A stretch of 64,000 nt of DNA from Endomychus coccineus (lineage: Eukaryota; Arthropoda; Insecta; Coleoptera; Endomychidae), in NCBI GenBank assembly GCA_958510875.1, contig OY294068.1, positions 197,370,315 through 197,434,314 on the forward strand. Direction: 5' to 3'. The notes beneath the pieces are model-generated. The model did no database searches. It was given only the letters and a program-made list of their open reading frames with translations, and was not told where the DNA came from. A program made the translations under genes and the position numbers. Below, one piece after another: positions 4,665 to 28,500 of this stretch (position 1 is its first letter; each line of letters opens with the position of its first letter).

Positions 4665-4960
4665 ATGCACTCCGAAGTAATTTTAAAATGCAAAAACAGT
4701 AAAAATTTAGAAGCGTGTCAAATTAGCCATTTTGGTAAATTTCCCACCCCTACAATGATATTCGAGTAAATCTGACGTCGGAATCGTATTCAGCGACCCA
4801 AAAAACCGCCTTCGTGCATTCGAAATGCCTAAAACACGTAAATTGCAAAATAACATATAAGGGGTGCAAAATTGGCCAATTTTGTCGATTTTACTCCCCC
4901 TTCGATGGATTGCAAGTAAATCTGGCTACGGATTCGTAATCAGCGACCCAAAAAACGCAA
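4665..4960 (-). repeat. two inverted, diverged satellite monomers at the array edge
   Basis: The orientation flips at about 4665. A strongly diverged monomer (about 4690-4815) and a better-kept one (4816-4957, with CATTCGAAATGCCTAAAAC and GATTCGTAATCAGCGACCC) are reverse complements of the monomers to the left. Inverted and decayed units are typical of the edge of a satellite array, where homogenisation is weak. Confidence 0.9.
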
Positions 4961-5803: not shown

Positions 5804-8800
5804 CTACAGAGAAATCAATTCCAATATTGTCGAAATAATCCTACTACCCTTGTCGTAATGCAATAAATTCAGAAGGGGGTCCCTGATTTTTTCTTCTAAT
5901 AAGGCGAACAGTTCATCTTTCATCATTTTTATCATTTCGGCAATCTAAGAAGAAAAAGTTGTGTCATCAATACAACCATACTGAAAATACGTCATTCAAA
6001 ATTTTTTCTTCATTGGAAAAAATATCAGAAATATTTACCTTGTGTTCTTCAACTTGAAACATCATCCAACCGTTTTCCAATGAGATAAAAGTACAGCCAT
6101 TGTGAACTTTGATATCTAGATCGAAACCCGAAAATAGTACCATAGAAATAACAGGAACCATACAGCAATCCCTGAAGAATATCTTACTTGTTCTCACTTT
6201 TTCTTGATAAACTAAATACGGACTTGGATAGTTGCTTTTCGTATAATTGACAGAGCTTGGATGCATGAAAACCTGAAAAAACAATTATTTATAATTAATT
6301 AGTTCTGTTATTGATTCAAGTTTGCAGGAATAATAGACCTAAAAATTCCTAGGACGCACATTTTTATATTGAAATTATCTTCCTATAAAGATAGATTTTG
6401 TAGTGACCATAACAATTTTTTTCAAATAAATTGTAATATTTTGATGCAATAAATTCGATGCTAAAAAAGTTTCATTTTAATGCGCCAATAACTATTCATA
6501 ATAATGGTTTGAAAAATATTTAAATATGCAAAACAATAATTTTAATAACTATTAAAAATAATGCACTCAATTCCCACCCAAAATAAATTTATTGTTAAGA
6601 TGTTCATTCATATTCTGAATTTCTTTGAGTTTTACCAGTAATTTTTAAATTAATTTTAATTTTAAAATAAAATTATTGATATTATTAATTACCGAACCTA
6701 ATTTTTAATGTCACAATTATTTTCAATTTATTTATTTTAATTTAAAATCTAATTTGAAAAATAAAATAAATGTCGCAAAATTGTAATAATGCACTCAATT
6801 CCCACCCAAAAGAAATTTATTGTTAAGATTTTGTCATTCATATTCTGAAGTTCTTTGCGTTTTACCAGTAATTTTTCAACTAATTTTAATTTTAAAATAA
6901 AGTTATTGATATTATTAATTACCGAACCTAATTTTTAATGTGATGATTATCTTCAATTTATTTATTTTAATTTAAAATCTAATTTGGAAAATAAAATTAA
7001 TGTCGCAAAATTGTAATAATGCACTCAATTCCACCCAAAAGAAATTTATTGTTAAGATTTTGTCATTCATATTCTGAATTTCTTTGAGTTTTACCTGTAA
7101 TTTTTAAATTAATTTTAATTTTAAAATAAAACTATTGGTATTATTAATTAGCGAACCTAATTTTTTATGTCATAATTATCTTCATTTTATTTATTTTAAT
7201 TTATTTTAATTTAAAATCTGATTTGAAAAATAAAATAAATGTCGCAATGTAATAATGCACTCAATTCCCACCCAAAAGAAATTTATTGTTAAGATTTTGT
7301 CATTCATATTCTGAATTTCCTTGCGTTATACCTGTAATTTTTAAATAAATTTTGATTTTAAAATAAAATTATTGGTATTATTAATTACCGAACGTGATTT
7401 TTAATGTCATAATTATCTTCAATTTATTTATTTTAATTTAAAATCTAATTTGAAAAATAAAATAAATGTCGCAAAATTGTAATAATGCACTCAATTCCCA
7501 CCCAAAAGAAATTTATTGTTAAGATTTTGTCATTCATATTCTGAAGTTCTTTGCGTTTTACCAGTAATTTTTTAACTAATTTTAATTTTAAAATAAAGTT
7601 ATTGATATTATTAATTACCGAACCTAATTTTTAATGTGATGATTATCTTCAATTTATTTATTTTAATTTAAAATCTAATTTGGAAAATAAAATTAATGTC
7701 GCAAAATTGTAATAATGCACTCAATTCCCACCCAAAAGAAATTTATTGTTAAGATTTTGTCATTCATATTCTGAATTTCTTTGAGTAATTTTTAAATTAA
7801 TTTTAATTTTAAAATAAAATTATTGGTATTATTAATTAGAGAACCTAATTTTTTATGTCATAATTATCTTCATTTTATTTATTTTAATTTATTTTAATTT
7901 AAAATCTGATTTGAAAAATAAAATAAATGTCGCAATGTAATAATGCACTCAATTCCCACCCAAAAGAAATTTATTGTCAAGATTTTGTCATTCATATTCT
8001 GAATTTCCTTGCGTTATACCTGTAATTTTTAAATAAATTTTGATTTTAAAATAAAATTATTGGTATTATTAATTACCGAACGTGATTTTTAATGTCATAA
8101 TTATCTTCAATTTATTTATTTTAACTTAAAATCTAATTTGAAAAATAAAATAATGTCGCAAAATTGTACATATATTTCTAAAATATCTCAGAATAATTTT
8201 CCATATTTATTTTAGTTAAATATTTTACAACTTATAAATTCGAATATTATTCTTAAAAACTACTGAAACCGTACATAATGTTGCAAGAAGTTGAAAAAAC
8301 TGACTCACCATTTCCTGAACAGTCGCAAAACGTAAGTCCTTGGGCTGAATATTTTTCGGCACAGCTCCAGCGGAACTCATTATGAAAGACTTCGAAGGCG
8401 TTAATATCTTAATTACATTAGGATAAAGAGCTGCACAAAGAACTGACGATAAGAGTCGATAATTTTCGCCGTTTTTGTTACACTGAAACAGAGTTTATTT
8501 ATTCATTTATTCACCATATGAAAAGCATATAAAAAAATTTCACAGCACATAAAAAGTTAATATCGATGGTAATTTTAGAGATCTAGCTACATTAGCTTAC
8601 CTCTGTACCAGTCAGGTTCAATATTTCATCTTGACCCGTTCTTCTTCGCCCCTGCAAATTAGTCGGGACAAAACCAATATCAACTAGAAACTCCAATAGT
8701 TGGTATTTAATATCAGCTATTGTGACCAACGTTCTGAATGACAAATAATTTTCATTCGCGAAATTTCTCCCAGCCAATGAACTCTTTTTATAAAGCTGCA

Positions 8801-11800
8801 ACCATTTCTGAAAAATATTTGGTTAATTTACAAGATTTGAATGAATAATAAATTTTGAATAAAACAATTGAATTTCATAAATAATAGCATATTCTTTTAT
8901 TTTATGAATTATAAGCATTTGTTGAATATGTTCTGTAATTATGAATATTTAATGATTTAAATAACTAATTTAATGTTCGACAAGTATGGAAATATTTATA
9001 AAAATATGTTCTGGAATGAAGAGAAATTATTTTAAATGATAAGTCATTTCAAAAATTATCTAAATAATTAATACTGAAAAGCCCAAAACATTCTCATTTC
9101 GTTAATTTAGCAAATTTTATCATTCATATTTTTTATATATTTGAAAAGTTTCTAACTGTAACAACTTCTGGAATAGAATTAATAATAAGATAAAAACACT
9201 AAAAATCATTCAAATTAATTAAAGAAAATGAAGACAAATTGTTTTAGATAATAAATAATTTCAAGTATTATCTAAATAATAAATACTGAAATACCCAAAA
9301 CATTCTTATTTCGTTAATTTCGCCATTTTTTGGTATTTACATTTTTTAAATATTTGAAAAGTTCGTAACTGTTACAACTTCTGGAATATACTTAATAATA
9401 ACATAAAAACCCTAAAAATAATTCAAATTAATTAAAGACAAATAAAAGAAATTGTTTTAGATAATAAGTCATTTCAAGAAATATTCCCATTTCGTTAATT
9501 TAGCAAATTTTATTATTTACGTTTTTTAAGTATTTGAAAAGTTTGTAACTGTAACAACTTCTGGAATAGACATAATGATAACAAAAAAACTAAAAGCAAT
9601 TTAAATTAATTTTACCTTGTAAGCTATAAGAACCGTTATTTGGTCACTAAACCCAGTCGCGAAATTCATTTTCTTCGCATTAGCCAGTTCCTTCTTCCCG
9701 AATGGCGTCAAGAACGGATTCTTGAAACTCAAACAAGCGGCCATCGTCAAAGCGGCATCGACACAGGAGAAAATGGCGCCGTATAGTATCAATTTTCCGA
9801 TTCTCACGTCGACCGGAAGTGCGGCCAAATGGAGTCCTAGAGGCGTGAGATCGACGTTTTTGTCTAGAGCACCTACGCTTTGTAATCGGCTGATGGACGA
9901 GTCGATATGATCGACAATCGGTGGTTCGATGAACGCGCCTAGGTAACATCAAAATAGTATTTCAGTAAGGTTAAAAGAACAATTTGAAAAAAGTAGCGTC
10001 GTTGAAAACCCTGCGAATAGGATTAAATGTCGTTTCTTTTTATTTCTACTTTAAAAATGCAATACAAAAACTATTATTATCCATTAGATTTCAGATTTCA
10101 AATCACAAAATTTTTGGAAACAAAAAGAAACAACTTAGATAATTTCTAAATAAATAAGATCAATTAATTATATCAAAGATTATTATTATTTTTTAACATT
10201 TATGTCCCTATCAAGTCTCCGCATGTGTATCCAAGTTTGGGTAAAACACGATTTTTGGCAAAATTGCTGAAATTTTTCTAGAAAAATAATTGATTTGTAA
10301 ATATTTGGTTATTGGTTATTCTTTTGAAATAGTTGAATTTTGGCAAAATTAAAACTCCAGACTCTGTAATTCAATTATCATAAGCTCCAGGAAATGGGAA
10401 AAAAATTGAAGCTGTTGATAGCAAAAAATCATTGTTGTCCTTTCATGAAAATATGTGAATATAAAAGAAAAGCCGGCGGAATTTAATTGTGCAATTTTTA
10501 AAATTCATAACTTCTAAAGGGGGCCCCCTATTGAGACTCACCCAATACTTCTTTCACGTCTCGATCTTCGAACGTCGGCAGCACTTTAATATTCAACACC
10601 ATTTGTTCCAAAGGGATCCTGTGGATTTCGGGAATAGGTTCATTGAGCATATGGTGTTGAAATCTATGGTTGGTATACAGATGAATGCAAACACCGGACA
10701 TGACACGACCTGCTCTGCCTTTACGTTGTAACGCGTTCGCTTTCGTCACCCATACCGTTTCCAAACTCTCCATGTTTCTATTGGGGTCGAAACGTTTCTC
10801 TTTCATTTTGCCCACCTCTATCACGAACACGCAATCGTCGATGGTGATCGACGTTTCGGCCAGATTCGTCGATAGAATGATTTTCCTCACTCCCCGTTTC
10901 GGTTTCCTATCAGCAAAAAAGATATTAAATAAATATTTCAGGGAAATAAATGGAATTTAACCCCTTACCTGAAAATAGCGCTTTGCTCTTCGCTGGAGAG
11001 AGACGAATGCAACGGAAGAAGTAAATATTTCTTGTTCCTGACACCGAAATCTGGATGATCTCGAAGTTGGTCGTATAAACTTGTAATTTCGGCGATTCCG
11101 GGAAGAAATATTAAAATGGTACCTTCTTTGGGATGGTCATGATCACCTTCCACCATCCAAGATAGGACGTATTCGATGAGGTCGTTGTTGATTCTTTCGT
11201 TGTCCATTAGGAACAGATTTTTGCAAGTCGTTTTCGAAAAATCTGATTAGGAAAAATACATCAATTTAATTCATAAATACCCGAAATAAGTATCAATTAC
11301 ATGATATATTTATAGTGCGGTCAAATGGGTATTGGACCAGTAAATCCTTGGGAAATGGATCGATTTTGATGGAATAAAGTGCATTCTCTTCAAAATGTCA
11401 TCAGAAAAAAAGTTGATCACAAATAAAGTTGAGCAAATTGTTTATATTGTTTATAAGCAATAAATAAACAATTCAATTCGCTTATTTTTGACCGTTTTGA
11501 TCGGATAAAGACTTTTTGTTATAAACAAAAATTGTTTATATTGTTTATAATAAATAAATAAACAATTTAATTACCTCAGCTTGGAGATAAATAACATAAA
11601 TATTTCTAAAAGATGTAAAATTTGACCGTTTTTGATCGAATAAAGACTATTTTTTATTATAAACAATTTATTTATCAACAAAATAGATTAAGTCGACCAA
11701 AACTGCGACTTTAGGGTCGTTTTCGGATAATTTTGGTATTCTGAGTTCGAGTTTATCGTCAAGATCTTCGAATGTATACCCACAAATTTGCTAATTTGTT

Positions 11801-14655
11801 ATAAAAAAACTATATTTATTATTAAATATATGAATTTGACTAAAATGTCGAGTTTATAGTCGTTGTCGGATAATTTTGCCCTCTTGAGTACAATTTTATT
11901 GCTATTATGTTCTTTAAATGCATTCTCGTGGAAATTTTCGAAAGCAAATTAGAAAAAAATAATAAAAATGTTGATATTTTAGTATGACAAAGTATCAATA
12001 AATATATATATAGAATTGAACATATTAATTTTTTTAAGGAGATATGGAAGGGAAAACAATTATTTAAAAATAGTGGCATGCCATTTATTACATTAAAGCT
12101 TACATTTCATCAATTTTGTCAAAAAAATCAAGTTATGAGTGTGCATTTTATATAAAAATTAATAAAAACGTCACATTACCTTTTTCTTTATTTGTTAATA
12201 AATAATTTGTTTATAACAATTTAAAGTTCATAATAGCAATAAAATCGTATTCAGGAGATCAAAATTATCCGAAAGCAACTTTAAACATTTTGGTCAAAGT
12301 AATAATAAATCTAATTTGTTTATAACAAATTAGCAGATTTATGGGAATACATTCGACGATATTGACGATATAATCGAACTCAGAATAACAAAATTATCCG
12401 AAAACTACCCTAAATTAGGAGTTTTGGTCGAATTCATCTATTTTGTTAATAAATAAATTGTTTATAATAAAAAATAGTCTTTATCCGATCAAAGACGGTC
12501 AAATATTAAATTTTTTAGAAATTTTTATGTTATCTCCAAACTGAGCTGATTAAATTGTTTATTTATTGTTCATAAACAATGTAAACAATTTGCGCAACTT
12601 TATTTGTGGTCTACTTTTTTCTGATGTCATTCTGTCCCATTAAAATCGATCCATTTCCCAAGGATTTACGGGTTTGACCTATTTTTATACCCATTTGACT
12701 GCATTATTATAATTTTTCGGTCGGCCACCAAAATCTGCTGAGAATAACTGAAACGCATGTGACGTCACGATTCTACTTTTTGTATGATAAAATAAATAAG
12801 GGTTTCGCGATCCGTGGTTTAATTATTACAGTCGCCCTTGCATGGTCTACGTGGCTAGTGAAAAATCTTAGTACCACATGTACCTTAATCTTAACGGGTC
12901 TTCCGATTATAGAAAATCTAACAAAATGTTCTAGGTCGTCCTTTAACTGCAATTCAAGAATTTTCAGGTTACGATTCTTTCAGATATATTAAGGCATTTC
13001 CGACAATCAACATTGAAGGTGCAAAAATTTATATTAATGCACAAAACTTGCATGAAAATGATATTCGCAATAAAAATATGTAGAATTTGGATGCATTTAT
13101 TTGCGTCAATCGATTCGAACCATTTTCTTCGACGGTTAATTTCTTTTGGACATAAATAAAAGTGTTGTTGAGACTATTTTTCAATTAATTTTTGCATAGG
13201 GGTACAATTCAAATGCAGCCTTTGTGTACCTCTTTTTTTTTCCCTTTGGCGGAGTCAGCTTGAAATATATGCTTGGAAACAGTGGACCAAAAAAAAAGAA
13301 GCAAATAATTTGCAATCTGTCAAGATTGCATGAGAACCGTAGATCCTAAAAAATTTCAGCCAAAAAATCTGAATATTAGAATGTTAAAGCTCCAAAACGA
13401 TTTTTTTAAGTTTCAATACGACCATTTTTCACCGAAATAAAGCATGTCAAAAATCACGGAAAAATTTGGAATTTTTTTTGCTTCTTTAATTTTTTTGAGT
13501 AGTGTATTATCTGCCTACATTGATGGGTAAAGCCAAGTCAACATATTTGTTCTTTACTATCGAAACCAGATAAATTTTCGTAGACCCCCGCTTACAACTG
13601 GTGAACCTGTCAGTTTTCAACAATCAACAAAGCATTCTTGATAGGTAAACTAAGCATCTCATTGGTTAATTTTGAAAATACTTAGCGTCGGTTTTGAAGG
13701 CCCATAAAAGGCATCTGAAGACAAGCCAAATCAGTTAGCCATCAACATCTGAAGAGTCAAGGTACTCAAGCTAATCATAAAATTTCCATAACCTTAGATT
13801 ATTGGATGAACATCGGTGAACCCAAGTGTTCCCGTAGCTTCGTAAGGTTGAAAGTAACCGAAGCAAATAAGTAATTTATACAAGTCAAGTAGTATTCCCA
13901 GTCTTCGAACAAAGTTTTTAAAAGTTATTATAACCATAATTCACAAGTAGCATCGTATAATAGTTAGTCTTCGACAACGTTCCAATACATCATTTAAGGT
14001 TTTATATCTTTTGAAAAAGAATAAGACAAGTTAACAATTATCAACAGTTCCTGATTTCTAAAGAAGTAACCACATTGTTTACCTGTGATTTGTGTATAGC
14101 ATAGAAATTGTGTACCTACGGGTAAAGTGAATTATCAAATTAATAAGAAAATCAAGCCAAGTGAACATTGCCTACATTTTTAAAAACATATTCTTGGATA
14201 TAAACTAAACGTAAGTTTATTTATTATTTCTCCATTGTATTATTATCTGTCTGTAAATCTGAAAGAAAGATTGTAGATTATAACTTTGTAAACAAATATT
14301 AATAGTAAATAATTTTGAGGTTAGATCATAGATCTATTTGAACATAAAATTATTAAAATTGATACTCGAGATAAAAAATAGAGTCATAGAAATTTAAATA
14401 TGAAAGTTTTTAACATTCAAAGAACATTGTGTTTAATTCCATAGATATAAAATAAAAAGGTAAAAGTTCATTATTCAAATCAAAACAAACATAAGATTTA
14501 AAATACAAATAAAAGCTAGCCGGTAGAATTCAAAACATTGAAACATTCAAATCAATATTCAAATTAATTCAAATCATAATTAAAGAATAAAACTCAGTAA
14601 AGAGTTTTTATATCAATTGGCGCCCAACGTGGGGCAAAATAAATTGTTTTCATAT

Positions 14656-14739
<84 letters not shown>

Positions 14740-17700
14740 TTTTGTTGATATTCTTGAACCATTTGTAATATTTGTATGTTTTCTTGGTATATTGGTTCGT
14801 ATATATACTGATAATGAAATAAAAATTCTGTTTTGACGTTTCGACAACGTTTATTGCCTTTATCAAAAATTGTTAATTGAATTAGTGTTTCCATGTAATT
14901 TAGAAAAGAATAGATGATTTTGATTAATGAAATGCGTCTGCAGCCGACTTGTGTTTTAAGATCCAATTAAAACTGCAGAAAACATTGGATCGGTTGTGAG
15001 TGAAAGAGTAATGTATGGCTAACTACAATTTGAAATAGATTGAATTTGATTAAATACAAGACATTCCAATATTGTACAATTATAAATATCTATGAATTAT
15101 TGAATGAATTAGTTACTCTATGATAAGTATTTCTATCATAACTATTCAAGTTTAAGATAATTCTATGGAATTTAACCTCAAAATTGTTACTCTATAGTGT
15201 CATAGTTAAATAATACTTCATCTTTTTTAGGTTGAATTTTAAATAGACAATGGAAAGTGGTACTTCAAATTAATAAAATTTTGTTAAGTTTGAATTAGAT
15301 TATTGTACAGTTTCGAAAGATTGGAATCTATTTTGTCATTTACACAATTGTTCTTTTTAATTTGAATAGATTCTAATATCAAACGTTTGTTGTCGTTTGT
15401 TTCAATATTTAAAATTTTTGTATTGTTGTAGTCGAAAGTATGGTTAGTGTCTTTCACATGTTTATTGAGCGCAGTTGATGAATTTTTGGTATATTTGTGG
15501 CCATTTAATCTTTTTTCGAGGTATTGTGAAGATTGGCCAATATATACCTTTTCGCAATCTTTGCAAGGGATGGAATAAACAGTATGGGTTATTTTTTTGA
15601 AAGGTACGCTGCTTTTTAATTTTGTAAAGAGACTTTTCTGATTTAAATAACTCTTATGACATATATGTAGGTCATAAGGTTTCACTATATTACAAATTTT
15701 CTCTGAAAGTCCACTGATATATGGTAGTGATATGTAATGCCTATCATTAGTTTTCTCATTATTGGTATTGATTCCACCAAATGAGTTATAAAATTTATGA
15801 ATTTTGTCTTTAGTTATCGAATTTACTAAATCAATGGGATAACCATTTCTTATTAAAGTTTCTTTTGTTTTTGTAATAGATATAGTTCTCAGTTCAGGAG
15901 AACTTAGTCGAATAGCTCTATCTATTAGATTTATAATAACATTTTTCTTATATTTTTTAGGTATATTAGAATTGAAATTAGTATACCTTCCTGACCAAGT
16001 AGGTTTGGTATACCATTTTGTTAGAATTTTGTTATCATTTGATTTTCTTACTAAAGTTAAATCTAAAAAATTTATTTCGTTATGATTTTCTAATTCAATC
16101 GTAAATTGTAACTTATGGTGAAAGGAATTGAAAGAATTCAAAAATTCATTACATTTGTTTTCAGGGATTGCAGCAATACAATCATCAACATATCTTTTGA
16201 AGAAGGCTATATTATAATTTAGTTGAGATACTACTTTTTCTTCAAGGAATTCCATTACTATTTGGGCTATGATACTTGATATTGGAGAGCCCATTGCACA
16301 ACCATCTAATTGTTTATAACAATCATCTTTATATTGTAAAAAATTAGCGGTGAATGTATATTCTATAGCTGTTAAGAACTCATTCATAGGTAAATTTGTA
16401 TATAGTTTTATTTCATCCCATTTATTTTGAATTATTTGTTTAGCTAATTCTAAAGGGATATTTGTATATAAAGATGTGACATCTAGTGATACTAAGATAT
16501 AGTTTTTAGGTATTGTAATTTTGTTAATGAATTCCTTGAAATCCCAAGAATCTTTGATGTAAAACTCATTTTTGTAAGCTATGTTTTTTAGTATGTTGGA
16601 TAAGTATTTAGCCATTTCATAAAAAGGTGATTGAATGCTGCATACTACAGGTCGCATCGGTATATTAGGTTTATGAATTTTGGGTAAACCATATATTTTT
16701 GGAGGATGAGCATTATGTATCGTTAATTGTCTATGAATGTATTTTGAAATATATTTCTTTTCAAACCATTTTTTTACTAAGTTATTATTTTTAGTTTGGT
16801 AAATATTAGTTGGGTTGTTATTTAGTTTCTTATATACTTCAGGATCATTCAACATTGTAGACATTTTATCCTCATATTCATTTGTGTCCATGATAACAGT
16901 TTTATTACCTTTATCTGCTTTTAAGATAGTAATTTGTGGGTTAGATTTGATGAATTGTTTGGTTTCTTTGAAATTTTTGATTGATTTGTTATTTTTATTA
17001 TTAAATTTATTATTTTTAACTGTTTGTTTGAAATTAGTTATTGTGTTTATACATTTTGATCTTATCTCATTTGCTATTTGAGTAGGTTTTTTAGCAATTT
17101 CAGTTTCAAGTGAAGAAATTATGTTATTGATAGGTATTTGTCTTTCGTTATATAGAGTATTACTAAATTTCTCACCGAGAGCTAAAGTGTCTATTACATT
17201 TTTTGGAACATTTGTTTGAGATAAATTCATTAGCCAATTATTATCAACTATGAGATCTCTTTTGTTATTGTTATTTAATTTATTTATTTTCTCAATATTT
17301 CTATGTTTAATTTTATTAAAGTTTTTTTCAAATTTTTGAGTTTCTAATTCTAAATACGTATTGTAGATTTGGGTAGGTAGGATATTTTTCATTGTAGATT
17401 TGGTTCTGCTTATGTTATTTTCAGTTTGTTTTACATTTTTACAAGTGTCAGATATTAAGAGGTTTAATACTTTTAATTGAAACGTTTCTTTGAATTGAAG
17501 ATAAGTATTATCTAAGTACTCACTATTGAAAATGATGTGATCATCATTGATTTTTAAAAATTTTGGTATTATTCTTAAACTTTTTAGTCGTAATAAGTAT
17601 ATTTTCCTATATAGGTTTTTTATTTTTCAAGAATACACTACTCTCAACATCAATATACATACATCGTAATAATCATGGCTTTTTATAAGAAAATTGAAGA

Positions 17701-20609
17701 AGATTATGGATTCTACACCGTCCAATTATTGAAAACGTTCTCAAAAATGATGAATACCTTTGCCAATCAAAAAAATAGGAAAATATACTTATTACGACTA
17801 AAAAGTTTAAGAATAATACCAAAATTTTTAAAAATCAATGATGATCACATCATTTTCAATAGTGAGTACTTAGATAATACTTATCTTCAATTCAAAGAAA
17901 CGTTTCAATTAAAAGTATTAAACCTCTTAATATCTGACACTTGTAAAAATGTAAAACAAACTGAAAATAACATAAGCAGAACCAAATCTACAATGAAAAA
18001 TATCCTACCTACCCAAATCTACAATACGTATTTAGAATTAGAAACTCAAAAATTTGAAAAAAACTTTAATAAAATTAAACATAGAAATATTGAGAAAATA
18101 AATAAATTAAATAACAATAACAAAAGAGATCTCATAGTTGATAATAATTGGCTAATGAATTTATCTCAAACAAATGTTCCAAAAAATGTAATAGACACTT
18201 TAGCTCTCGGTGAGAAATTTAGTAATACTCTATATAACGAAAGACAAATACCTATCAATAACATAATTTCTTCACTTGAAACTGAAATTGCTAAAAAACC
18301 TACTCAAATAGCAAATGAGATAAGATCAAAATGTATAAACACAATAACTAATTTCAAACAAACAGTTAAAAATAATAAATTTAATAATAAAAATAACAAA
18401 TCAATCAAAAATTTCAAAGAAACCAAACAATTCATCAAATCTAACCCACAAATTACTATCTTAAAAGCAGATAAAGGTAATAAAACTGTTATCATGGACA
18501 CAAATGAATATGAGGATAAAATGTCTACAATGTTGAATGATCCTGAAGTATATAAGAAACTAAATAACAACCCAACTAATATTTACCAAACTAAAAATAA
18601 TAACTTAGTAAAAAAATGGTTTGAAAAGAAATATATTTCAAAATACATTCATAGACAATTAACGATACATAATGCTCATCCTCCAAAAATATATGGTTTA
18701 CCCAAAATTCATAAACCTAATATACCGATGCGACCTGTAGTATGCAGCATTCAATCACCTTTTTATGAAATGGCTAAATACTTATCCAACATACTAAAAA
18801 ACATAGCTTACAAAAATGAGTTTTACATCAAAGATTCTTGGGATTTCAAGGAATTCATTAACAAAATTACAATACCTAAAAACTATATCTTAGTATCACT
18901 AGATGTCACATCTTTATATACAAATATCCCTTTAGAATTAGCTAAACAAATAATTCAAAATAAATGGGATGAAATAAAACTATATACAAATTTACCTATG
19001 AATGAGTTCTTAACAGCTATAGAATATACATTCACCGCTAATTTTTTACAATATAAAGATGATTGTTATAAACAATTAGATGGTTGTGCAATGGGCTCTC
19101 CAATATCAAGTATCATAGCCCAAATAGTAATGGAATTCCTTGAAGAAAAAGTAGTATCTCAACTAAATTATAATATAGCCTTCTTCAAAAGATATGTTGA
19201 TGATTGTATTGCTGCAATCCCTGAAAACAAATGTAATGAATTTTTGAATTCTTTCAATTCCTTTCACCATAAGTTACAATTTACGATTGAATTAGAAAAT
19301 CATAACGAAATAAATTTTTTAGATTTAACTTTAGTAAGAAAATCAAATGATAACAAAATTCTAACAAAATGGTATACCAAACCTACTTGGTCAGGAAGGT
19401 ATACTAATTTCAATTCTAATATACCTAAAAAATATAAGAAAAATGTTATTATAAATCTAATAGATAGAGCTATTCGACTAAGTTCTCCTGAACTGAGAAC
19501 TATATCTATTACAAAAACAAAAGAAACTTTAATAAGAAATGGTTATCCCATTGATTTAGTAAATTCGATAACTAAAGACAAAATTCATAAATTTTATAAC
19601 TCATTTGGTGGAATCAATACCAATAATGAGAAAACTAATGATAGGCATTACATATCACTACCATATATCAGTGGACTTTCAGAGAAAATTTGTAATATAG
19701 TGAAACCTTATGACCTACATATATGTCATAAGAGTTATTTAAATCAGAAAAGTCTCTTTACAAAATTAAAAAGCAGCGTACCTTTCAAAAAAATAACCCA
19801 TACTGTTTATTCCATCCCTTGCAAAGATTGCGAAAAGGTATATATTGGCCAATCTTCACAATACCTCGAAAAAAGATTAAATGGCCACAAATATACCAAA
19901 AATTCATCAACTGCGCTCAATAAACATGTGAAAGACACTAACCATACTTTCGACTACAACAATACAAAAATTTTAAATATTGAAACAAACGACAACAAAC
20001 GTTTGATATTAGAATCTATTCAAATTAAAAAGAACAATTGTGTAAATGACAAAATAGATTCCAATCTTTCGAAACTGTACAATAATCTAATTCAAACTTA
20101 ACAAAATTTTATTAATTTGAAGTACCACTTTCCATTGTCTATTTAAAATTCAACCTAAAAAAGATGAAGTATTATTTAACTATGACACTATAGAGTAACA
20201 ATTTTGAGGTTAAATTCCATAGAATTATCTTAAACTTGAATAGTTATGATAGAAATACTTATCATAGAGTAACTAATTCATTCAATAATTCATAGATATT
20301 TATAATTGTACAATATTGGAATGTCTTGTATTTAATCAAATTCAATCTATTTCAAATTGTAGTTAGCCATACATTACTCTTTCACTCACAACCGATCCAA
20401 TGTTTTCTGCAGTTTTAATTGGATCTTAAAACACAAGTCGGCTGCAGACGCATTTCATTAATCAAAATCATCTATTCTTTTCTAAATTACATGGAAACAC
20501 TAATTCAATTAACAATTTTTGATAAAGGCAATAAACGTTGTCGAAACGTCAAAACAGAATTTTTATTTCATTATCAGTATATATACGAACCAATATACCA
20601 AGAAAACAT

Positions 20610-20699
<90 letters not shown>

Positions 20700-23600
20700 A
20701 ATGTAATGTGATGTTATTGTTATAGTCCTTGTTAAACTAGTCTAAGATGTCAAGGTATCTGTGCCAAACAATATGTTTAATATATTAACGCAACATTAAA
20801 CATATTGCATTGTGGGTCAGCTCCGAGATCTAAACATATACTTATAATAACATTACTAAATAGAAATAAGGTCGCATTCTATAATTTGGGGATTTTAGGT
20901 AATCTCGTATAGGGATGGAAGATACATATACTACATTGTGATGGATTCATGTTTCGTCCACGGTTATGAAACGGCGCAAAAAGTCTTTCTTAACGCGCTT
21001 GAACATCGCCAAACACTCCTTTGAAGTTGTCACACGGTCGCGCTTGTTGTCAACAGAGCAAATGCGGCACTCATCTGGCCGATAGCTTTAGTTTGCGAAA
21101 AATGATCAATAATATTATCAAAAAATTTATCATTTTGTGTTTTACTAAATCTTTTTCAATAGATATCAAACTAACATTGTATAAACGATTTTGGCCCATT
21201 GTATTTCGCATGTAAGTTTTAATTCGTTGGAGAGAAGAAAATGATCCTCCACCGATGCCGACGTGACAGGAATGGTGACTGTCAAACAAAGTAGTTTATA
21301 AAACTGAGGTAAAACTTGTTGCAAATCATTGTCTATCATATATTTTATCATATCGGCGTGAATGTCGTACTGGCCTAAAATATCTTTATCCGAGTATATA
21401 ACGCATAATTCATTGTGCAGTGCTAATTTATCAAAAAATTTATATTTTAGAACTAAGTTATACAAAAAACTTCAATTCATGTAAATCGGAAAATCGAATC
21501 TCAATTTGACCTTTAATAGTATCTAAAATTTCATAAAAAAAAGTTGTTTATAATGTAGTTTCTTGTCTACCAAATTATATCTTTTCCTCCTTCAACAATA
21601 TTCTGTTTACCCGTTAATTTAAACTTAATACTCTATGTAATATGTTCCTGCAATTTTTCATGTCTGTCTATACCACAAGCTGAATTTTTCAAATCATCAT
21701 AGCCCAAGTGCCCCCAACATGAAGTTGTATCAGATGGAAATAGCAAGCAATACCAGCAATATAATTTATTGTGTACCTCAGATCCCGTTAACCTTAAATA
21801 TTTTTTACAATTATCAGTATCAAATCATCGATTTTGAAACATACCTGTCATCACTAATCTTATCAGCAACTAAATCACTACTCAGTTTAACGTTTAATAA
21901 CCAAAGAACTCTTTGTTAATAACTCACCGAACGACCGAACAGATAAATTATAACTTAACCTTACATCGCTTCACGAAACAAAAACAACAATTGCCAGAGC
22001 AATTTTGCAGCCGCGGCAAGTAATCGTATTTTATACGACCGCCGGGCAACGAGGTCTATACCTCGTTGCGCCGGGAGCGTACGAGAAGCTAGCCTCCATA
22101 GGCTGTTGCCATATTCGCTGTTTTCCCCTATTTGTGAATTGAACTGGTTGGAAAAACGGCAACTGTGTTGACCACACGTATTTAGCGTTTGAGATAGAGA
22201 ATCTAGCCTCTGGCCACTGTTGCCAGATAAAAAATAACTACTGAGAACGGGGAATTAATTGTAAAATTTAAAGAATTATCAGAGAAACAGGAAATAAAAT
22301 GAAGAATGATCATTAAGATAAATTGGTGAGGAGGCTGAGCCTCCTTAGTCTCCTTCGAGGAGCCGCCACTGAAATCTTTACCAATAATAGTCACTCTGTT
22401 CAATTTTCCACGCTTGCAAAGCAGATATATAAATAAAATAAAAACTTGAGCAAATCGCGTTGAAAATTCCAAAGGTACATACTCTGATATCTGGCCATCA
22501 TCTGTCTGAAATTCAAGTTCTCGTCCCTCAGTCCGTCTTTGGGTCGAGCGCCGTTCAAACAAACGTCGCTAATTTCTAAATGAGTGTCGAAAAAGTCAGA
22601 ATCTTTTTTTATCTTCCTGGCGAATTCCGAGCCTTCCTCCAAGACGTAGCTACTCGCTTCCAAAATATCCTCAAGAAAGTACTGTTCCACTGGGAACGTT
22701 CGACCTGGCACTTTAATAACGGGCACGTTCCCAAAATAATTCGAGAACAGTTCGATGTTCATTGTAGCGCTCATCAATATGACCTTCAGATCAGGTCGGA
22801 CAGCCAGCAAATCTCGGAGAATCAACAATAAGAAGTCGCTAGAATAATAAAAAATTCCAGCTCCAATTCAGTATTTTTTGAGGTTATTTGTTTTTAATAA
22901 CTTTAATAAAAATTGAAGTGAAGGAATAAGAAGAATATATTTACCTCTCCTCACTTCTTTCATGGACTTCATCAACAACCACATGGGTTACTAGAGACAG
23001 CGTGGGATCGCTTTCCAATCGCCGCAGCAGTATCCCAGTAGTGCAAAAAGTAAGTCTCGTCCTCGAAGACATCTTGCTCTCTAACCTAATCTGATAACCA
23101 ACCACATTACCCACTTCTTCCACCCTTTCCTCGGCCACTCTTTCCGCCACACCAATCGCAGATATCCTTCTGGGTTGTGTGCAAACGATGTCAACGTGCT
23201 TCTTCACTTTCTTGTACTGCATCATCCAATCTTCTAGAATATACTGGGGAACTTGAGTGCTCTTGCCGCATCCTGTCTCGCCGTGAATCACGGTAACTTG
23301 AGACCGTTCGATGGTGCTCAGAATCTCTTTCATGTAGGTGTAGACTGGTAGTACTCGACGGCTGCTCAAGTGTCGAAGATAGTCAGCGTTTTGGAATTTG
23401 AGTGGGAAATTCAACACCAATTTCGCATCCTCCGCCAAAACTTCTTCGTAACTCAACGTTTTCTTGTTGTTACGATTCGTTCGGCCTTTCACATAATGAG
23501 TGCCGGATTTGAGCATATGCGGCTTGTTAGTTCTTTTCTCAAACAACTTAACATTCGGTTTGATGAAATCTACTTCTTCTTTCAACACTTCTTCTATTTC

Positions 23601-24938
23601 ATCGGCATTTTTCAATATTTCTGTGATGGTATACACACATGGAACGCCGTCTTCTGCTAGAATTTTTGCTTCTTTCAAGAGCCTCTTACAGATGTGCAGA
23701 TTGACTAAAGGAGGTAATATAGCATTTGTTTTCAAGAAAATTATCGGAGCTTCAAACGGATATTTCGTCCCTGGGGGAAACCTAATTTCCAAATCGAAAG
23801 AAAAATCTTCCAAATGTGCGTTATTGTTAACAGCCACAACTGGGATTTCATGAGAAAATCGACATTTATCACCATATTTACAATGCCCTCTAACTAAATT
23901 TCTACATAACTGTTTGTTATTATTATATGTTGGTTTTTTCTTAATATCTTTGTGTTTATGATGAAAGATATTGATTAAATAATCTAATTTCAAAGTCAAT
24001 ATCCATACATTGCCTTTGACTTTTTCATGAAACAATGTCTCATAAATCGATTCTAGGGAACTTTTTTCATCTAACCTGAGTTCTAGTAGCTCATTCTCTG
24101 ATGGAATATTATCTTTGTTTGAGAATTTTTTGTCCAAATCAAAATCGAAATATTTGCTGTAGAGTAAAGCCAGAGAATTTTCTACATTGCCTAAACAATA
24201 ATCAAAAGCTTCCATACAATGGTTTGTATGGAATCCATAACTGAAAATAACAATTATCATAAGCCATTAAACCAAATTCGAATAAAATTCACCTTTCAAG
24301 CCTAAATAAAGCAAACTGTTTGAGTCTTTCATTTTCTTCAGTTTGGTTGTCCACTTTGTTTGAAAAGTCATATCCCCCTTTCACAACTAAACTGCCCTGT
24401 CCCATCCAAAATTTCCTACCAAGGTTTGATTTTACATCTTCATAATCTGCAGCAGTGCTAAGTTTGAACTCCTGAAAATTATGTTATTATGTATTTAATA
24501 AATTCCTTGATATTTTAGAGACTAATGATGGGTCATGAATATTCAGATTATGCATTTTCATAAGCCATTTTACATGGAATGTTCACAATAAATTCCAATA
24601 TGTAGACTTTAACTGGTTATCATATCTACTAGTGATAATTATATGAAACTTTCTCTGCATTAGATTTTTTAGCAAAATTAAATTTTCACAAGATTAGTGT
24701 ATTTACCGGCCCATGAATGTACAACAATGTTTCCAATATGTTTTCCTGTAAATTTTCAGTTAATCTCAGAAACTGCAACTCTTCTTTTACTATATTCTTG
24801 GGTGCACTTGATTCAATATTCCTGAAATGAATGTGTTACATTGCTTCCTTACTCTCAATTGCAGACATACCCTATTTTAACCTTGGGTATTTCACGAAGC
24901 AAAATATCCGCCGCATTAATTGCACTTTCACCATTCAT
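5804..24938 (-). CDS. DHX57: DHX57-type ATP-dependent RNA helicase (UBA, RWD, CCCH zinc finger, DExH core)
   Basis: Exons in coding order: 24938-24871, 24821-24707, 24471-24293, 24240-22945, 22838-22483, 11242-10969, 10906-10542, 9938-9616, 8807-8601, 8482-8309, 6272-6039, 5944-5804. All phases join, giving 1243 aa ending in TAG. Domains: a UBA-like segment near residues 112-155; an RWD domain interrupted by a CCCH finger ([19 protein letters not shown], about 233-251), the DHX57 arrangement; Walker [10 protein letters not shown] (about 441); motif II as DEVH (about 544); SAT; motif [11 protein letters not shown]; motif [10 protein letters not shown]; then the helicase-associated and OB-fold region to the C terminus. 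Family members unwind RNA 3'-5' using ATP; the precise cellular role of DHX57 is little known. The start at 24938 is the first ATG of an open exon. Intron 5 (11243-22482) is swollen by transposons, yet both flanking exons are intact. Confidence 0.94.
6558..8166. repeat. seven-copy ~230 bp tandem repeat in DHX57 intron 10
   Basis: The word GCACTCAATTCC recurs at 6563, 6791, 7021, 7257, 7487, 7717 and 7945 (periods 228-236). Units 2-4 and 5-7 share private variants (for example CTGAAGTTCTTTGCG, the doubled TTATTTTAATT, and CCTTGCGTTATACC), so a 696 bp trimer was duplicated as a block. Very AT-rich and non-coding. Confidence 0.93.
9028..9600. repeat. about three tandem ~210 bp units in DHX57 intron 8
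   Basis: The phrase TTGAAAAGTTNNTAACTGTNAC recurs at about 9141, 9353 and 9533 with matching flanks (TTTCGTTAATTT, TTTTAGATAATAA). The third unit is shortened. It is a separate array from the one in intron 10. Confidence 0.75.
9939..10541 (-). other. DHX57 intron 7, no feature seen
   Basis: AT-rich intron between the helicase C-terminal-domain exon and the next exon; nothing recognisable beyond its splice sites. Confidence 0.6.
11315..12703. mobile_element. foldback element, family A (copy 1), long inverted repeats
   Basis: Starts GTGCGGTCAAATGGGTATTG and ends with the inverted form, ...CCCATTTGACTGCA. The arms (about 11315-11920 and 12220-12703) match in order over hundreds of bases, including TGGATCGATTTTGATGG, TTGTTTATATTGTTTATAAG and AATTATCCGAAA words. 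About 300 bp of non-palindromic centre separates them. No coding capacity, so it is a non-autonomous DNA transposon by inference. It lies in DHX57 intron 5. The flanks are AT-rich and no clean target duplication could be fixed. Confidence 0.85.
12704..13502. other. unassigned stretch of DHX57 intron 5
   Basis: No coding, tandem-repeat or inverted-repeat structure recognised. It has runs such as poly-A at 13290-13298. Its origin is unknown. Confidence 0.5.
13503..14635 (+). mobile_element. LTR and tRNA-Lys primer-binding site of a truncated LTR retrotransposon
   Basis: TGGCGCCCAACGTGGGGC at 14618-14635 has the form of a primer-binding site complementary to the 3' end of a lysine tRNA. It sits two bases after ...TATCA, a normal LTR end. 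Upstream are a polyadenylation signal (AATAAA, 14586-14591) and a TATA-like CATAAAAGG near 13702. A TG start near 13503 would give an LTR of about 1.1 kb, the size and primer type of Osvaldo-like Ty3 elements. No gag or pol follows: the internal region is replaced by (TA)n and the Penelope copies. The left boundary is inferred, because no second LTR is present. Confidence 0.65.
14657..14738. repeat. (TA)n microsatellite, left side of the Penelope palindrome
   Basis: About 40 uninterrupted TA units directly outside the left Penelope arm, with about 30 bp of unique sequence between. Confidence 0.95.
14768..17610 (-). mobile_element. Penelope-like element, minus-strand copy, 5'-truncated
   Basis: Left arm of a large palindrome: 2843 bp, reverse complement of 17775-20617. 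The frame is open from 17610 to the stop at 15284, but the first ~33 codons present in the plus copy are missing, so this copy is truncated at the palindrome centre. The first ATG left is at 17392. It has the same RT and GIY-YIG motifs as the plus copy. The 3' end carries a degenerate hammerhead-like motif (minus strand, 14866-14838). Confidence 0.95.
15284..17610 (-). pseudogene. Penelope RT-endonuclease reading frame lacking its N terminus
   Basis: Open and apparently identical in protein to the plus copy over at least 702 residues (from ATG 17392). Contains [19 protein letters not shown], the catalytic RYVDDC and a C-terminal GIY-YIG segment ([18 protein letters not shown]). The N terminus is lost at the palindrome junction, so it is called broken despite having no internal stop. 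Confidence 0.85.
17675..20101 (+). CDS. Penelope-like reverse transcriptase with GIY-YIG endonuclease (808 aa)
   Basis: Intact 808-residue frame. A basic N-terminal region (1-340) leads into a Penelope-type [42 protein letters not shown] and the active-site RYVDDC at about residues 508-513. A linker follows, then a C-terminal GIY-YIG endonuclease with [14 protein letters not shown] near 710-725. The family copies its RNA into nicked DNA with these two activities. The ATG at 17675 lies in the palindrome spacer, so only this copy has the full N terminus. The lack of stops and the match to its partner suggest recent insertion. It lies antisense to DHX57, inside intron 5. Confidence 0.95.
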   Translation: MAFYKKIEEDYGFYTVQLLKTFSKMMNTFANQKNRKIYLLRLKSLRIIPKFLKINDDHIIFNSEYLDNTYLQFKETFQLKVLNLLISDTCKNVKQTENNISRTKSTMKNILPTQIYNTYLELETQKFEKNFNKIKHRNIEKINKLNNNNKRDLIVDNNWLMNLSQTNVPKNVIDTLALGEKFSNTLYNERQIPINNIISSLETEIAKKPTQIANEIRSKCINTITNFKQTVKNNKFNNKNNKSIKNFKETKQFIKSNPQITILKADKGNKTVIMDTNEYEDKMSTMLNDPEVYKKLNNNPTNIYQTKNNNLVKKWFEKKYISKYIHRQLTIHNAHPPKIYGLPKIHKPNIPMRPVVCSIQSPFYEMAKYLSNILKNIAYKNEFYIKDSWDFKEFINKITIPKNYILVSLDVTSLYTNIPLELAKQIIQNKWDEIKLYTNLPMNEFLTAIEYTFTANFLQYKDDCYKQLDGCAMGSPISSIIAQIVMEFLEEKVVSQLNYNIAFFKRYVDDCIAAIPENKCNEFLNSFNSFHHKLQFTIELENHNEINFLDLTLVRKSNDNKILTKWYTKPTWSGRYTNFNSNIPKKYKKNVIINLIDRAIRLSSPELRTISITKTKETLIRNGYPIDLVNSITKDKIHKFYNSFGGINTNNEKTNDRHYISLPYISGLSEKICNIVKPYDLHICHKSYLNQKSLFTKLKSSVPFKKITHTVYSIPCKDCEKVYIGQSSQYLEKRLNGHKYTKNSSTALNKHVKDTNHTFDYNNTKILNIETNDNKRLILESIQIKKNNCVNDKIDSNLSKLYNNLIQT
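17775..20617 (+). mobile_element. Penelope-like element, plus-strand copy (right palindrome arm)
   Basis: The arm begins ATAGGAAAATATACTTATTA and ends CCAAGAAAACATACAAATAT, just before the right (TA)n tract. It equals the left arm in length (2843 bp) with no difference noticed in the stretches compared. A 164 bp spacer (17611-17774) separates the arms. About 500 bp of non-coding 3' sequence follows the ORF, containing TTGATAA...GAAAC (20519-20547), a degenerate hammerhead-like core whose GGCAA/TTGTC can pair as stem II. Confidence 0.95.
20614..20696. repeat. (TA)n microsatellite, right side of the Penelope palindrome
   Basis: About 40 TA units directly after the right arm, mirroring the left side. 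The ~30 bp separating arm and (TA)n on the left is absent here. Confidence 0.95.
20700..20945 (-). repeat. ~240 bp dispersed repeat, copy 1
   Basis: Reverse complement of 53046-53300, with near-continuous matching: TATACGAGATTACCTAAAATC, GAATGCGACCTTATTTCTA, ATGTTTAGATCTCGGAGCTG, GGCACAGATACCTTGA. The identity of the repeat is unknown; it could be an LTR or transposon end fragment. Confidence 0.85.
20946..22371 (-). mobile_element. degraded hAT-superfamily transposon
   Basis: On the minus strand the element begins CAGTGGCGGCTCCTCGAAGG at 22371, a typical hAT terminus, followed by the subterminal palindrome GGAGGCTCAGCCTCC. The transposase C-terminal dimerisation region is recognisable at 21465-21071 (TIPVTSAS..., then [19 protein letters not shown]) but is split between two frames near 21245, with most of the protein missing. 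A GC-rich hairpin lies at 22041-22075. The other terminus was not found. It lies in DHX57 intron 5, same strand as the gene. Confidence 0.8.
22041..22075. repeat. GC-rich perfect hairpin inside the hAT remnant
   Basis: GCAACGAGGT-CTAT-ACCTCGTTGC is a 10 bp perfect stem with a 4 nt loop, flanked by near-complementary CCGG/CCGG. It stands out in AT-rich surroundings and probably belongs to the hAT subterminal region. Confidence 0.8.
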
Positions 24939-25517: not shown

Positions 25518-28500
25518 ATGCACGAAGCATATGAGACATCGTCTTTAATCAATTTGTCCAACCAGATAGAGTCTGTAGCAGCTTATGGTAAATTGATCTT
25601 ATTTTATGAACAACTGTTAATTTTTTTTCCTGTAGATGACAATCTACTGCTTGGTACGAGACAGGGGTTCTTGTTCATGTACAATGTAAACAAAGAGGAA
25701 GATGATAAATATAATGTTCAGCTTATGAGGTTCAATAAGGCATTCAGTAAAAAGCCTGTAACTCAATTGGAAGTGATTCCAGATTATCACCTTTTAGTTA
25801 GTTTGACTGGTAAACACTTAATTCCTCAATAAACTAATTGAGAATTTAAGTGGACGATGTGTTTCAGATAGTATTGTACAAATACATGATATTACAACAA
25901 TTAATTTCACTACAATTCATCAGCTGCAGCGAACCAGAGGAGCAACATATTTTGCTTTAAATATCAAGGTAAAGGACACATTTATTGACCTATATGCATA
26001 AATACTTTATATGTTATATTTGAAAAGTAGGAAATCTTTTTTATTTTAAATTGAATGAAGACTACTTGTTTCTTCAGCATGAAAAGTCTCTAACTGGAGA
26101 AGGTGCAGTCCTTGTACGGATGGCAGTAGTTGTTAAAAGAAAACTACAACTGTATTATCTTAAAAATAATGAGTTTAAAACCTTAATCGAGGAAATCAGT
26201 TTGAGTGAAACACCGAGAGCTCTAATTTGGTCTCAAGAGAGTATCTGTGTGGGATTCCGAGGAGAATATGCCTTATTAGATTTGAATGATAATGGAAAGC
26301 AAACTGAACTGTTTCCAACAAGTGGAAGCAGATCGAGTGAACCATGCATGGCAAGAGTATCCGATAGGGCATTTGCTCTATGTCGGGAATCACAAACAGT
26401 ATTAGTGAATGTCAAAGGAGAAACGGAAGTCACTACAGCTTTACGATGGTCTGATGTACCACTCGCTCTGGCATGGGATGAACCTTACGCTCTGTCTGCT
26501 TTATCCGAAGGTATCGAGGTGGCAACTCCAGATGCATCGGGAACTGTGCAAATGTTCAATAATTTAGGTGAATATTAATATAGTAAGGTCCTCGGTAGAT
26601 TTTACATTATATTATATTTTAGGAAAAATCAGGTTTTTGGTTCCTTGTCGACAAGGATTCGTATATGCAGCTTCGGTCAGTCAAGTTTGGGCAATAACTT
26701 CGGTCGATATTGCCAAACAGAGAAGGTTACTATTAGAAGCCAAACAGTTCCAATTGGCTCTGAAATTAACGGTGAGTGAATTTCTGCAGTATCTGATTTA
26801 ATTTCGATCAGTAACATTGAAATGCATATTCTCAGTGTGTCAAATATGCTGGTTCTGTGTCATCAGACATTTCTGTAACATCTGGGGTTCCCCAGGGATC
26901 CCATATAGGTCCACTACTCTTTATTATTTATTGATGATATATCAGAAGTAATACAACACAGCTGCTATTTGCTATTTGAGGATGATGCTCTTGAATATTT
27001 ATGTTTTTTGTAAATTGGCATGTCCGTAAATAAATAAATAAATAAATATCTTCAAGGCGATCTCAGACGAATCCGAAGAGGATAAAAACGACAAAGTTCA
27101 TCAGATCCAAACGTTGCTTGCTTACGATCTCTTCGCGAACAAACACTTTCAACAGAGCATGAAGGAATTCGCCAAACTAAAAACTGATCCGTACGACGTG
27201 ATACGCCTCTTTCCGGAACTGCTTCCGCAACAATCCGGCGAAGCGCCTCCTCAAGATTTACCAACTCTGGTCGGTAAAGATCTCGAAACTGGCATCTTGG
27301 CTCTTATCGATTATCTCACAGACATCAGACATCCGTTGAAGAGGGAGGTGTCGAATAGTAGCGAATCGAAAGGGAAATCCGCTTTGCAATTGTTGCAAAT
27401 TATCGACACCACTTTACTGAAATGCTACTTGCAAACCAACGATGCGTTGGTGGCGCCTCTCTTGAGACTCAATCGTTGTCATTTGGCCGAAGCCGAAAAG
27501 GTTTTACGCAAAATGGGACGACACAACGAGCTGGTCATACTTTATAACACCAAAGGTCAGCATCGGAAGGCTCTCGAACTGTTGAAATCGGAAAACGCGA
27601 TCGACCGAACTGTGAAATATTTGCAGCATCTCGCGCCGGAACACGTGGGACTGATCCTCGAGTTCTCCGACTGGGTGCTAACGGCCTCGCCGGACGAAGG
27701 ATTGAGAATTTTCATCGAAGAATCGTCCGACGTGGAACCGCCACCGAGACCTCGCGTTCTCGATTTTCTCCTGAGGTCGCATTCGTCTTCCGTCATACCG
27801 TACCTGGAGCACGTGGTGAACGTTTGGAACGATACGAATCCGTTGTTTCACAACGCGTTGATTCATCAGTACAAGGAACAGGTGTTGGCGAGTAACGCGG
27901 ACAGTTCGAGTACGAGAAGATTGTTGATTGATTTTCTGGAGAAGAGTCAAAATTATACGCCCGAATCGGTACTGGCTAATTTTCCGCTTGAAGGATTGTT
28001 GGAGGAGCGAGCGCTGATTTTGGGTCGATTGGGAAGGCACGATCAAGCTCTCTCTATCTACGTTCGTGTGTTAGGGGATGTCGATAAAGCTCTGAAGTAT
28101 TGCGCCAAAGTTTACGAACAGAAAGCTCCAAGAAGTAAAGGGGTAAGTAATTTATGATCACTCCAGTAGTTTTGTCGGCCACAGCGGGTCAATAGTTAAA
28201 GTTTTTCTTAGCCTTGTGAAAACAAAAATTGATTTTACGTCAATTAGTTTTCTTACAACTTCAAATTTCTTACTCGAGAAGGTCTTTCTCCTTAAAACAT
28301 CAAAGATTGGCTAGATACGGGGAAAATTCACCGTCTTATTCGGTGGTAAATTGGTCAAAATGGTTTCGAATGGGGCAGGAATTCTTGAAGGATGACGCTC
28401 GATTCGAACGGTGCTTATATGTAAACTAGAAAAAATGAACTTTAGGGGTACAGGATGAAATCTAATAGGAAGCTATTTAAAAGAATTAATGAAAGTATTA

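What the first reader, a model, noticed from the sequence alone, without database searches (positions are those of the whole stretch)
14768..20617. Near-perfect 5.8 kb Penelope palindrome inside a helicase intron
Two Penelope-like copies face each other head-to-head with equal 2843 bp arms, no difference seen in the stretches compared, only a 164 bp spacer, and (TA)n on both outer sides. Transcribed as part of DHX57 intron 5, the RNA would form a hairpin of almost 3 kb, a strong potential source of endogenous siRNA. The truncated copy ends exactly where the spacer begins, which fits a template-switch or fold-back event during insertion. An assembly artefact is the main alternative.
Basis: partly seen in the sequence, partly recalled or inferred. 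Interest (0 to 1): 0.85.

Follow-up and report, generated by a model that had tools for sequence, protein, structure and literature searches.

The report
Head-to-head Penelope retroelement palindrome
An intron of an animal gene, probably a beetle's, carries two identical copies of a Penelope-type jumping gene fused head to head: a large, young example of an arrangement this family is known to make, which may preserve a trace of how the element inserts itself.

Summary
14768-17610 and 17775-20617 are exact reverse complements (2843 nt, 0 mismatches). They are two Penelope-like (PLE) copies, head to head. The 164-nt "spacer" is the 5' end of the right copy: 64 nt of leader and the first 33 of 808 codons; the left copy is 5'-truncated. 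The only two long (TA)n tracts in the window cap the two 3' ends. The insert lies in an 11.2-kb predicted intron of DHX57. Head-to-head PLE repeats with a palindrome at the junction are published (PMC3846280), as is the proposal that Penelope long inverted repeats yield siRNA (PMC3136932). I favour priming from both sides of a cut in (TA)n, because the two copies have different 3' endpoints and a lizard PLE protein cuts and extends both strands in vitro (PMC11167929). Self-priming, two insertions and misassembly remain open. siRNA output is untested, and no other genomic copy could be examined because the genome search did not complete.

The parts
14658..14737 (.). left outer (TA)n tract, 80 nt, next to the 3' end of the left copy
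14738..14767 (-). 30 nt at the 3' end of the left copy that the right copy lacks
14768..17610 (-). left Penelope-like copy (left arm), truncated at its 5' side; encodes residues 35-808
   Evidence: arms; tblastn
17606..17615 (.). 10-bp palindrome CCTATATAGG at the head-to-head junction; its ATAGG half recurs at 17775-17779
17611..17774 (+). the 'spacer': 64 nt upstream of the start codon plus the first 33 codons of the right copy
17675..20101 (+). intact 808-codon ORF of the right copy, reverse transcriptase (YVDD) and GIY-YIG endonuclease
   Evidence: no Pfam or NCBIfam hit of its own
17775..20617 (+). right arm, part of the right Penelope-like copy
20614..20696 (.). right outer (TA)n tract, 83 nt, at the 3' end of the right copy
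11243..22482 (-). predicted DHX57 intron (11,240 bp, GT-AG) that holds the palindrome
   Evidence: tblastn and splice-site reading

Best explanation
A recent insertion of an endonuclease-bearing Penelope-like retroelement into a (TA)n stretch of a DHX57 intron, primed from both sides of the cut. The GIY-YIG endonuclease cuts both strands of the self-complementary (TA)n target; each TA-ended 3' strand starts reverse transcription near the 3' end of an element RNA, at AUAU sites about 30 nt apart; the two cDNAs grow toward each other; one reaches about the RNA 5' end (right copy), the other stops 164 nt short (left copy); the heads are joined through the short ATAGG/CCTAT homology. Shown: two identical copies, head-to-head order, one truncation, TA tracts at both 3' ends, different 3' endpoints, junction palindrome, intact ORF. 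Inferred: the double cut, the priming, the joining, and that the (TA)n was in the target rather than made as a tail. Also inferred: - strand intron RNA could fold into a 2843-bp hairpin with a 164-nt loop, a possible Dicer substrate.
For: Exact arms. The two 3' ends start at different points, ACAAATAT|TA on the right and 30 nt further on the left, each passing into TA. The two TA tracts at the ends are the only long ones in 64 kb. Junction palindrome with ATAGG recurring at the truncation point. In the literature, purified PAc (Anolis PLE) cleaves and extends both top and bottom strands, prefers AT-rich DNA, and starts internally on the RNA (PMC11167929, section 3 read whole).
Against: PAc's RNA start sites are reported not to be homologous to the cut DNA, which speaks against the annealing step proposed here. 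A later 30-nt deletion between AATAT repeats would also make the 3' ends differ. Junction palindromes are what PMC3846280 takes as the sign of self-priming. No target-site duplication can be read inside (TA)n. No other copy was seen, so neither the true 5' end nor the normal 3' end of the element is known.
Confidence: 0.45

Rival explanations
1. Self-priming (fold-back): the minus-strand copy of the element folds back at its 3' end through ATAGG and is itself copied, giving the second, 5'-truncated copy, as proposed for Adineta vaga Penelope elements.
For: Head-to-head order and a palindrome at the inverted junction are the features from which PMC3846280 infers self-priming on an antisense template (passages). 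A 10-bp palindrome sits on the junction here, and a 5-nt match lies at the truncation point.
Against: The copied-back arm should end like its template, yet the left (truncated) copy has 30 nt at its 3' end that the right copy lacks.
Confidence: 0.22
2. Assembly artefact: two separate Penelope-like insertions, or reads that double back on themselves, were joined into a palindrome that does not exist.
For: Long perfect inverted repeats are hard to assemble. PMC3846280 reports trouble assembling such Penelope structures, but argues that they cannot be dismissed as artefacts. No reads could be examined.
Against: The outer flanks differ and the palindrome stops at both element 3' ends, not at arbitrary read ends. 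The 164-nt interior has the right anatomy for a 5' end. DHX57 coding blocks on both sides are in order and on one strand.
Confidence: 0.15
3. Two successive insertions: one copy entered (TA)n, and later a second, 5'-truncated copy was primed at the remaining TA on the other side and ended at the head of the first.
For: The first insertion would leave TA next to its 5' end; different 3' endpoints are then expected.
Against: Needs two events at one spot within a time too short for any difference in 2843 nt, and the second must stop exactly at the head of the first.
Confidence: 0.13
4. DNA-level inverted duplication: one inserted copy was duplicated by repair or replication template switching, with no second reverse transcription.
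For: Short homology at the junction, and TA tracts as possible points of resolution.
Against: The duplication covers element sequence only, stopping at its 3' end, and the supposed copy carries 30 nt not in its source.
Confidence: 0.05

Closest known systems
Penelope families of the rotifer Adineta vaga (Pen2a, Pen2, Pen3; PMC3846280, passages, section 6 read whole)
   Same: Head-to-head inverted repeats with a palindrome at the junction; the paper calls head-to-head the most frequently observed arrangement. Insertion without a target-site duplication and with microhomology is described.
   Different: There the inverted partner is typically a short pLTR (about 200 bp), or parts of a permuted element; here it is a nearly complete 2843-nt copy, no pLTR was found, and both outer ends are (TA)n.
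Penelope of Drosophila virilis (PMC3136932, passages, Discussion read whole)
   Same: Endonuclease-bearing PLE; a D. virilis protein of the same family aligns at 33% over 776 positions (that it is Penelope itself is my inference). Its long inverted repeats are proposed there as the source of 21-nt siRNA.
   Different: siRNAs were measured there, and not here. The authors think these siRNAs probably play no role in germ-line silencing.
PAc, Poseidon from Anolis carolinensis (PMC11167929, section 3 read whole)
   Same: RT plus GIY-YIG protein; AT-rich target; both strands cut and extended; internal RNA start.
   Different: Tandem genomic order with pLTR and hammerhead ribozyme; its RNA start site lies in the first part of the ORF and is not homologous to the cut DNA.
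LINE-1 twin priming (recalled; only search listings seen)
   Same: Two priming events on the two sides of one target give inverted element pieces.
   Different: Twin priming as I recall it inverts part of one copy; here 2843 nt are present twice.
Drosophila hairpin loci giving endogenous siRNA (PMC5392987, listing and abstract start seen)
   Same: An inverted repeat whose RNA could be diced.
   Different: No small-RNA evidence here.

Membership tests
Penelope-like elements (PLE) | Reverse transcriptase of the PLE type | tested here: met
   171 relatives at E<=1e-3 among 7998 scored candidates; three relatives scanned: RVT_1 above the cut-off in two, just below it in one; YVDD conserved. The window protein itself has no Pfam or NCBIfam hit.
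Penelope-like elements (PLE) | C-terminal GIY-YIG endonuclease | tested here: met
   VYSIPC..YIG with R, H, E and N positions aligned to P0027, which scores GIY-YIG PF01541 at 29.1 bits. GIY-YIG was scored in one of the three relatives scanned.
Penelope-like elements (PLE) | pLTRs, direct terminal repeats (typical, not required for membership) | tested here: not met
   Longest exact match between the known 64-nt 5' leader, or the whole spacer, and the 516-nt 3' UTR is 9 nt. Only 64 nt of leader are known.
Penelope-like elements (PLE) | Hammerhead ribozyme (found in some PLEs) | tested here: not met
   No hammerhead match at E<=5 in 14000-21500.
Head-to-head Penelope inverted repeat (as in PMC3846280) | Head-to-head order with a palindrome at the junction | tested here: met
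   Orientation of the ORFs; CCTATATAGG at 17606-17615.
Two-ended target-primed insertion | Independent 3' start points on the two copies, both at the target sequence | tested here: inconclusive
   3' ends differ by 30 nt and both meet (TA)n, but a later deletion between AATAT repeats would look the same.
Endogenous siRNA hairpin locus | 21-nt reads of both polarities from the arms | not testable with these tools
   No small-RNA data; only the fold was computed.

The most novel reading that the evidence does not exclude
The palindrome is a genomic record of one PLE complex cutting both strands of a (TA)n target and reverse-transcribing RNA from each end, so that PLE head-to-head duplications come from two-ended priming rather than self-priming; and the product, lodged in an intron of a host gene, is a ready-made 2.8-kb dsRNA source against its own family.
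Probability: 0.2. Interest if true: 0.6.

Novelty: new member of a known kind. Interest (0 to 1): 0.4.

Why it matters
How Penelope-like elements insert is still unsettled (PMC11167929). A young, undamaged head-to-head product with both 3' junctions intact gives a concrete case for choosing between two-ended priming and self-priming. If transcribed, it would also test whether one inverted insertion can start siRNA production against a retroelement family. The structure itself is of a published type, so the discovery value is moderate.

Tried and rejected
pLTR remnant in the left copy's 3' extension: it shares a 10-mer with the 5' leader. Simple shuffles of the leader reached that in 3 of 2000, but dinucleotide shuffles of the extension in 74 of 5000 (268 of 5000 against the whole spacer), and 120 of 7230 other 64-mers of the window did as well; I dropped it as weak.

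Hammerhead ribozyme: no match. The three Rfam rows of that call (mir-190 twice, mir-297 once) lie far below their gathering scores and were set aside.

Target-site duplication: none can be read, because both ends lie in (TA)n. The left flank (13000-14640) has no second copy in the window. The right flank from 20700 is 91% like 53047-53286, and that copy has an 11-nt TA run at 53290-53300, at about the matching place. The sequence beyond that run does not match the left flank, so this is only a hint that the target carried TA.

Direct identification of the protein by Pfam, NCBIfam and PDB sequence failed (the two rows are weak chance matches to a proteasome subunit). Identity rests on relatives. 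A scan of viral contigs gave two pattern matches and no relative.

Full report
OBSERVATION. The two arms are as reported: 14768-17610 and 17775-20617, 2843 nt, fully complementary, 164 nt apart, with no mismatch in a base-by-base comparison. A perfect inverted repeat of this length is not chance. With a neutral rate of about 2.9e-9 per site per generation (recalled, not from a call), no difference in 2 x 2843 sites puts the duplication below roughly 180,000 generations at 95% (hand calculation), unless gene conversion has kept the arms alike.

WHAT THE ARMS ARE. The right copy has an 808-codon ORF at 17675-20101. The search found 171 relatives at E<=1e-3 among 7998 scored candidates (a capped set), of which 120 were listed; the best has 51% identity over 96% of the query. 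A D. virilis protein aligns at 33% over 776 positions. Of three relatives scanned, two score RVT_1 above the Pfam cut-off, one just below it, and one scores GIY-YIG. The window protein carries YVDD and the GIY-YIG pattern but has no Pfam or NCBIfam hit of its own. This is an endonuclease-bearing Penelope-like element (PLE).

THE SPACER IS PART OF THE ELEMENT. The start codon and the first 33 codons lie in the spacer. I aligned the 45 relatives of 795-860 aa among the first 62 listed. By eye, 42 of 45 carry residues across the same N-terminal stretch; P0023, P0038 and P0050 lack all or part of it. The nearest ones share a pattern like M.F...I...YG......KQKNR.IFLLR. So the right copy is complete at the protein level. 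The left copy matches residues 35-808 at 100% and is truncated at its 5' side. The two heads face each other.

THE JUNCTION. The left arm ends in CCTAT and the right copy begins with ATAGG, making CCTATATAGG, which occurs once in the window. ATAGG also opens the right arm at 17775. Perfect 10-bp palindromes are centred at 287 of 63,991 window positions, at 137 of 63,990 if pure TA is left out, and at 10 of 2998 in the element, so one exactly on the junction has a chance of about 0.2-0.5%.

THE OUTER ENDS. TA tracts of 80 and 83 nt cap the two 3' ends. They are the only runs of 8 or more TA units in 64 kb; the next longest alternating tract is 11 nt. The 3' ends differ: the right copy passes from ACAAATAT straight into TA, while the left goes on for 30 nt before its TA tract.

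THE PLACE. DHX57 is encoded on the - strand: RWD, CCCH zinc-finger and DEAD domains at 22944-24266; earlier blocks between 24292 and 24805; later blocks at 22840-22483, 11246-10965 and 10905-10672. The predicted intron runs from a GT at 22482 to an AG ending at 11243; joined by hand, the frame reads ...RYQ-NFSKTTCKN..., like the relatives shown. TA tracts and element (14658-20696) make up 6039 of its 11,240 bp. The best-scoring named DHX57 relative is from a beetle (Ignelater; Cryptolaemus is also listed, besides moths and bees), so the host is probably a beetle (inferred).

MECHANISM. Three facts constrain it: two identical copies, different 3' endpoints, and TA at both. In the two-ended model both strands of a TA target are cut and each primer starts on the RNA at an AUAU site, one about 30 nt inside the other. 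PMC11167929 (section 3 read whole) states that its PLE protein PAc, which it presents as the first active full-length PLE protein purified, cuts and extends both strands, unlike R2Bm and LINE-1, prefers AT-rich sites and starts internally. Against my annealing step, the same paper finds PAc's start sites not homologous to the cut DNA. Self-priming, which PMC3846280 infers from junction palindromes, explains the junction but not the differing 3' ends; a 30-nt deletion between AATAT repeats could reconcile them. My odds: two-ended priming 0.45, self-priming 0.22, misassembly 0.15, two insertions 0.13, DNA-level duplication 0.05.

CONSEQUENCE. The - strand RNA of the palindrome (5850 nt) folds with all 2843 arm pairs in register, MFE -4620 kcal/mol; one arm alone gives -571. 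This shows only that such an RNA would pair if made. For D. virilis Penelope, 21-nt siRNAs were measured and long inverted repeats proposed as their source; the authors add that these siRNAs probably play no role in germ-line silencing (PMC3136932, Discussion read whole).

NOVELTY. Nine library searches, each listing at most 25 papers, showed no title or abstract start that describes a nearly full-length head-to-head PLE with TA tracts at both ends. The library holds open-access papers only. I read only the passages and sections named here (PMC12910113: passages only). The kind of structure is known (PMC3846280). I class it as a new member of a known kind: unusually long, young and complete.

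LIMITS.

Noticed in passing
window 1-4665: Satellite-like tandem array, 150-bp unit, 31.2 copies, 96% matches.
   Followed up: no
window 56437-57382, + strand: Decayed Penelope-like relic: tblastn pieces in three frames; the window's own element matches pieces of it at 46-55%. Weak single pieces also at 37956-38060 and 50858-51037.
   Followed up: partly
window 20700-20942 and 53047-53286: Repeat family flanking the right TA tract, with a second copy in opposite orientation, 91% alike.
   Followed up: partly
window 14617-14635: Sequence that looks like a tRNA-Lys primer-binding site of an LTR retroelement (label recalled); one match in the window at up to 3 mismatches.
   Followed up: partly
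window 21166-21471, - strand: Open frame that resembles the C-terminal dimerisation region of hAT transposases (label recalled, not searched).
   Followed up: no
window 48015-48917, - strand: 300-aa open frame with DUF4817, HTH_24 and DDE_3 matches, a transposase-like gene.
   Followed up: no
window 27042-28157, + strand: Gene piece with Vps39_1 and clathrin-repeat domains, on the opposite strand to DHX57.
   Followed up: no
window 6557-8168 and 38223-38999: Two further tandem arrays, with 230-bp (7 copies) and 144/282-bp units.
   Followed up: no
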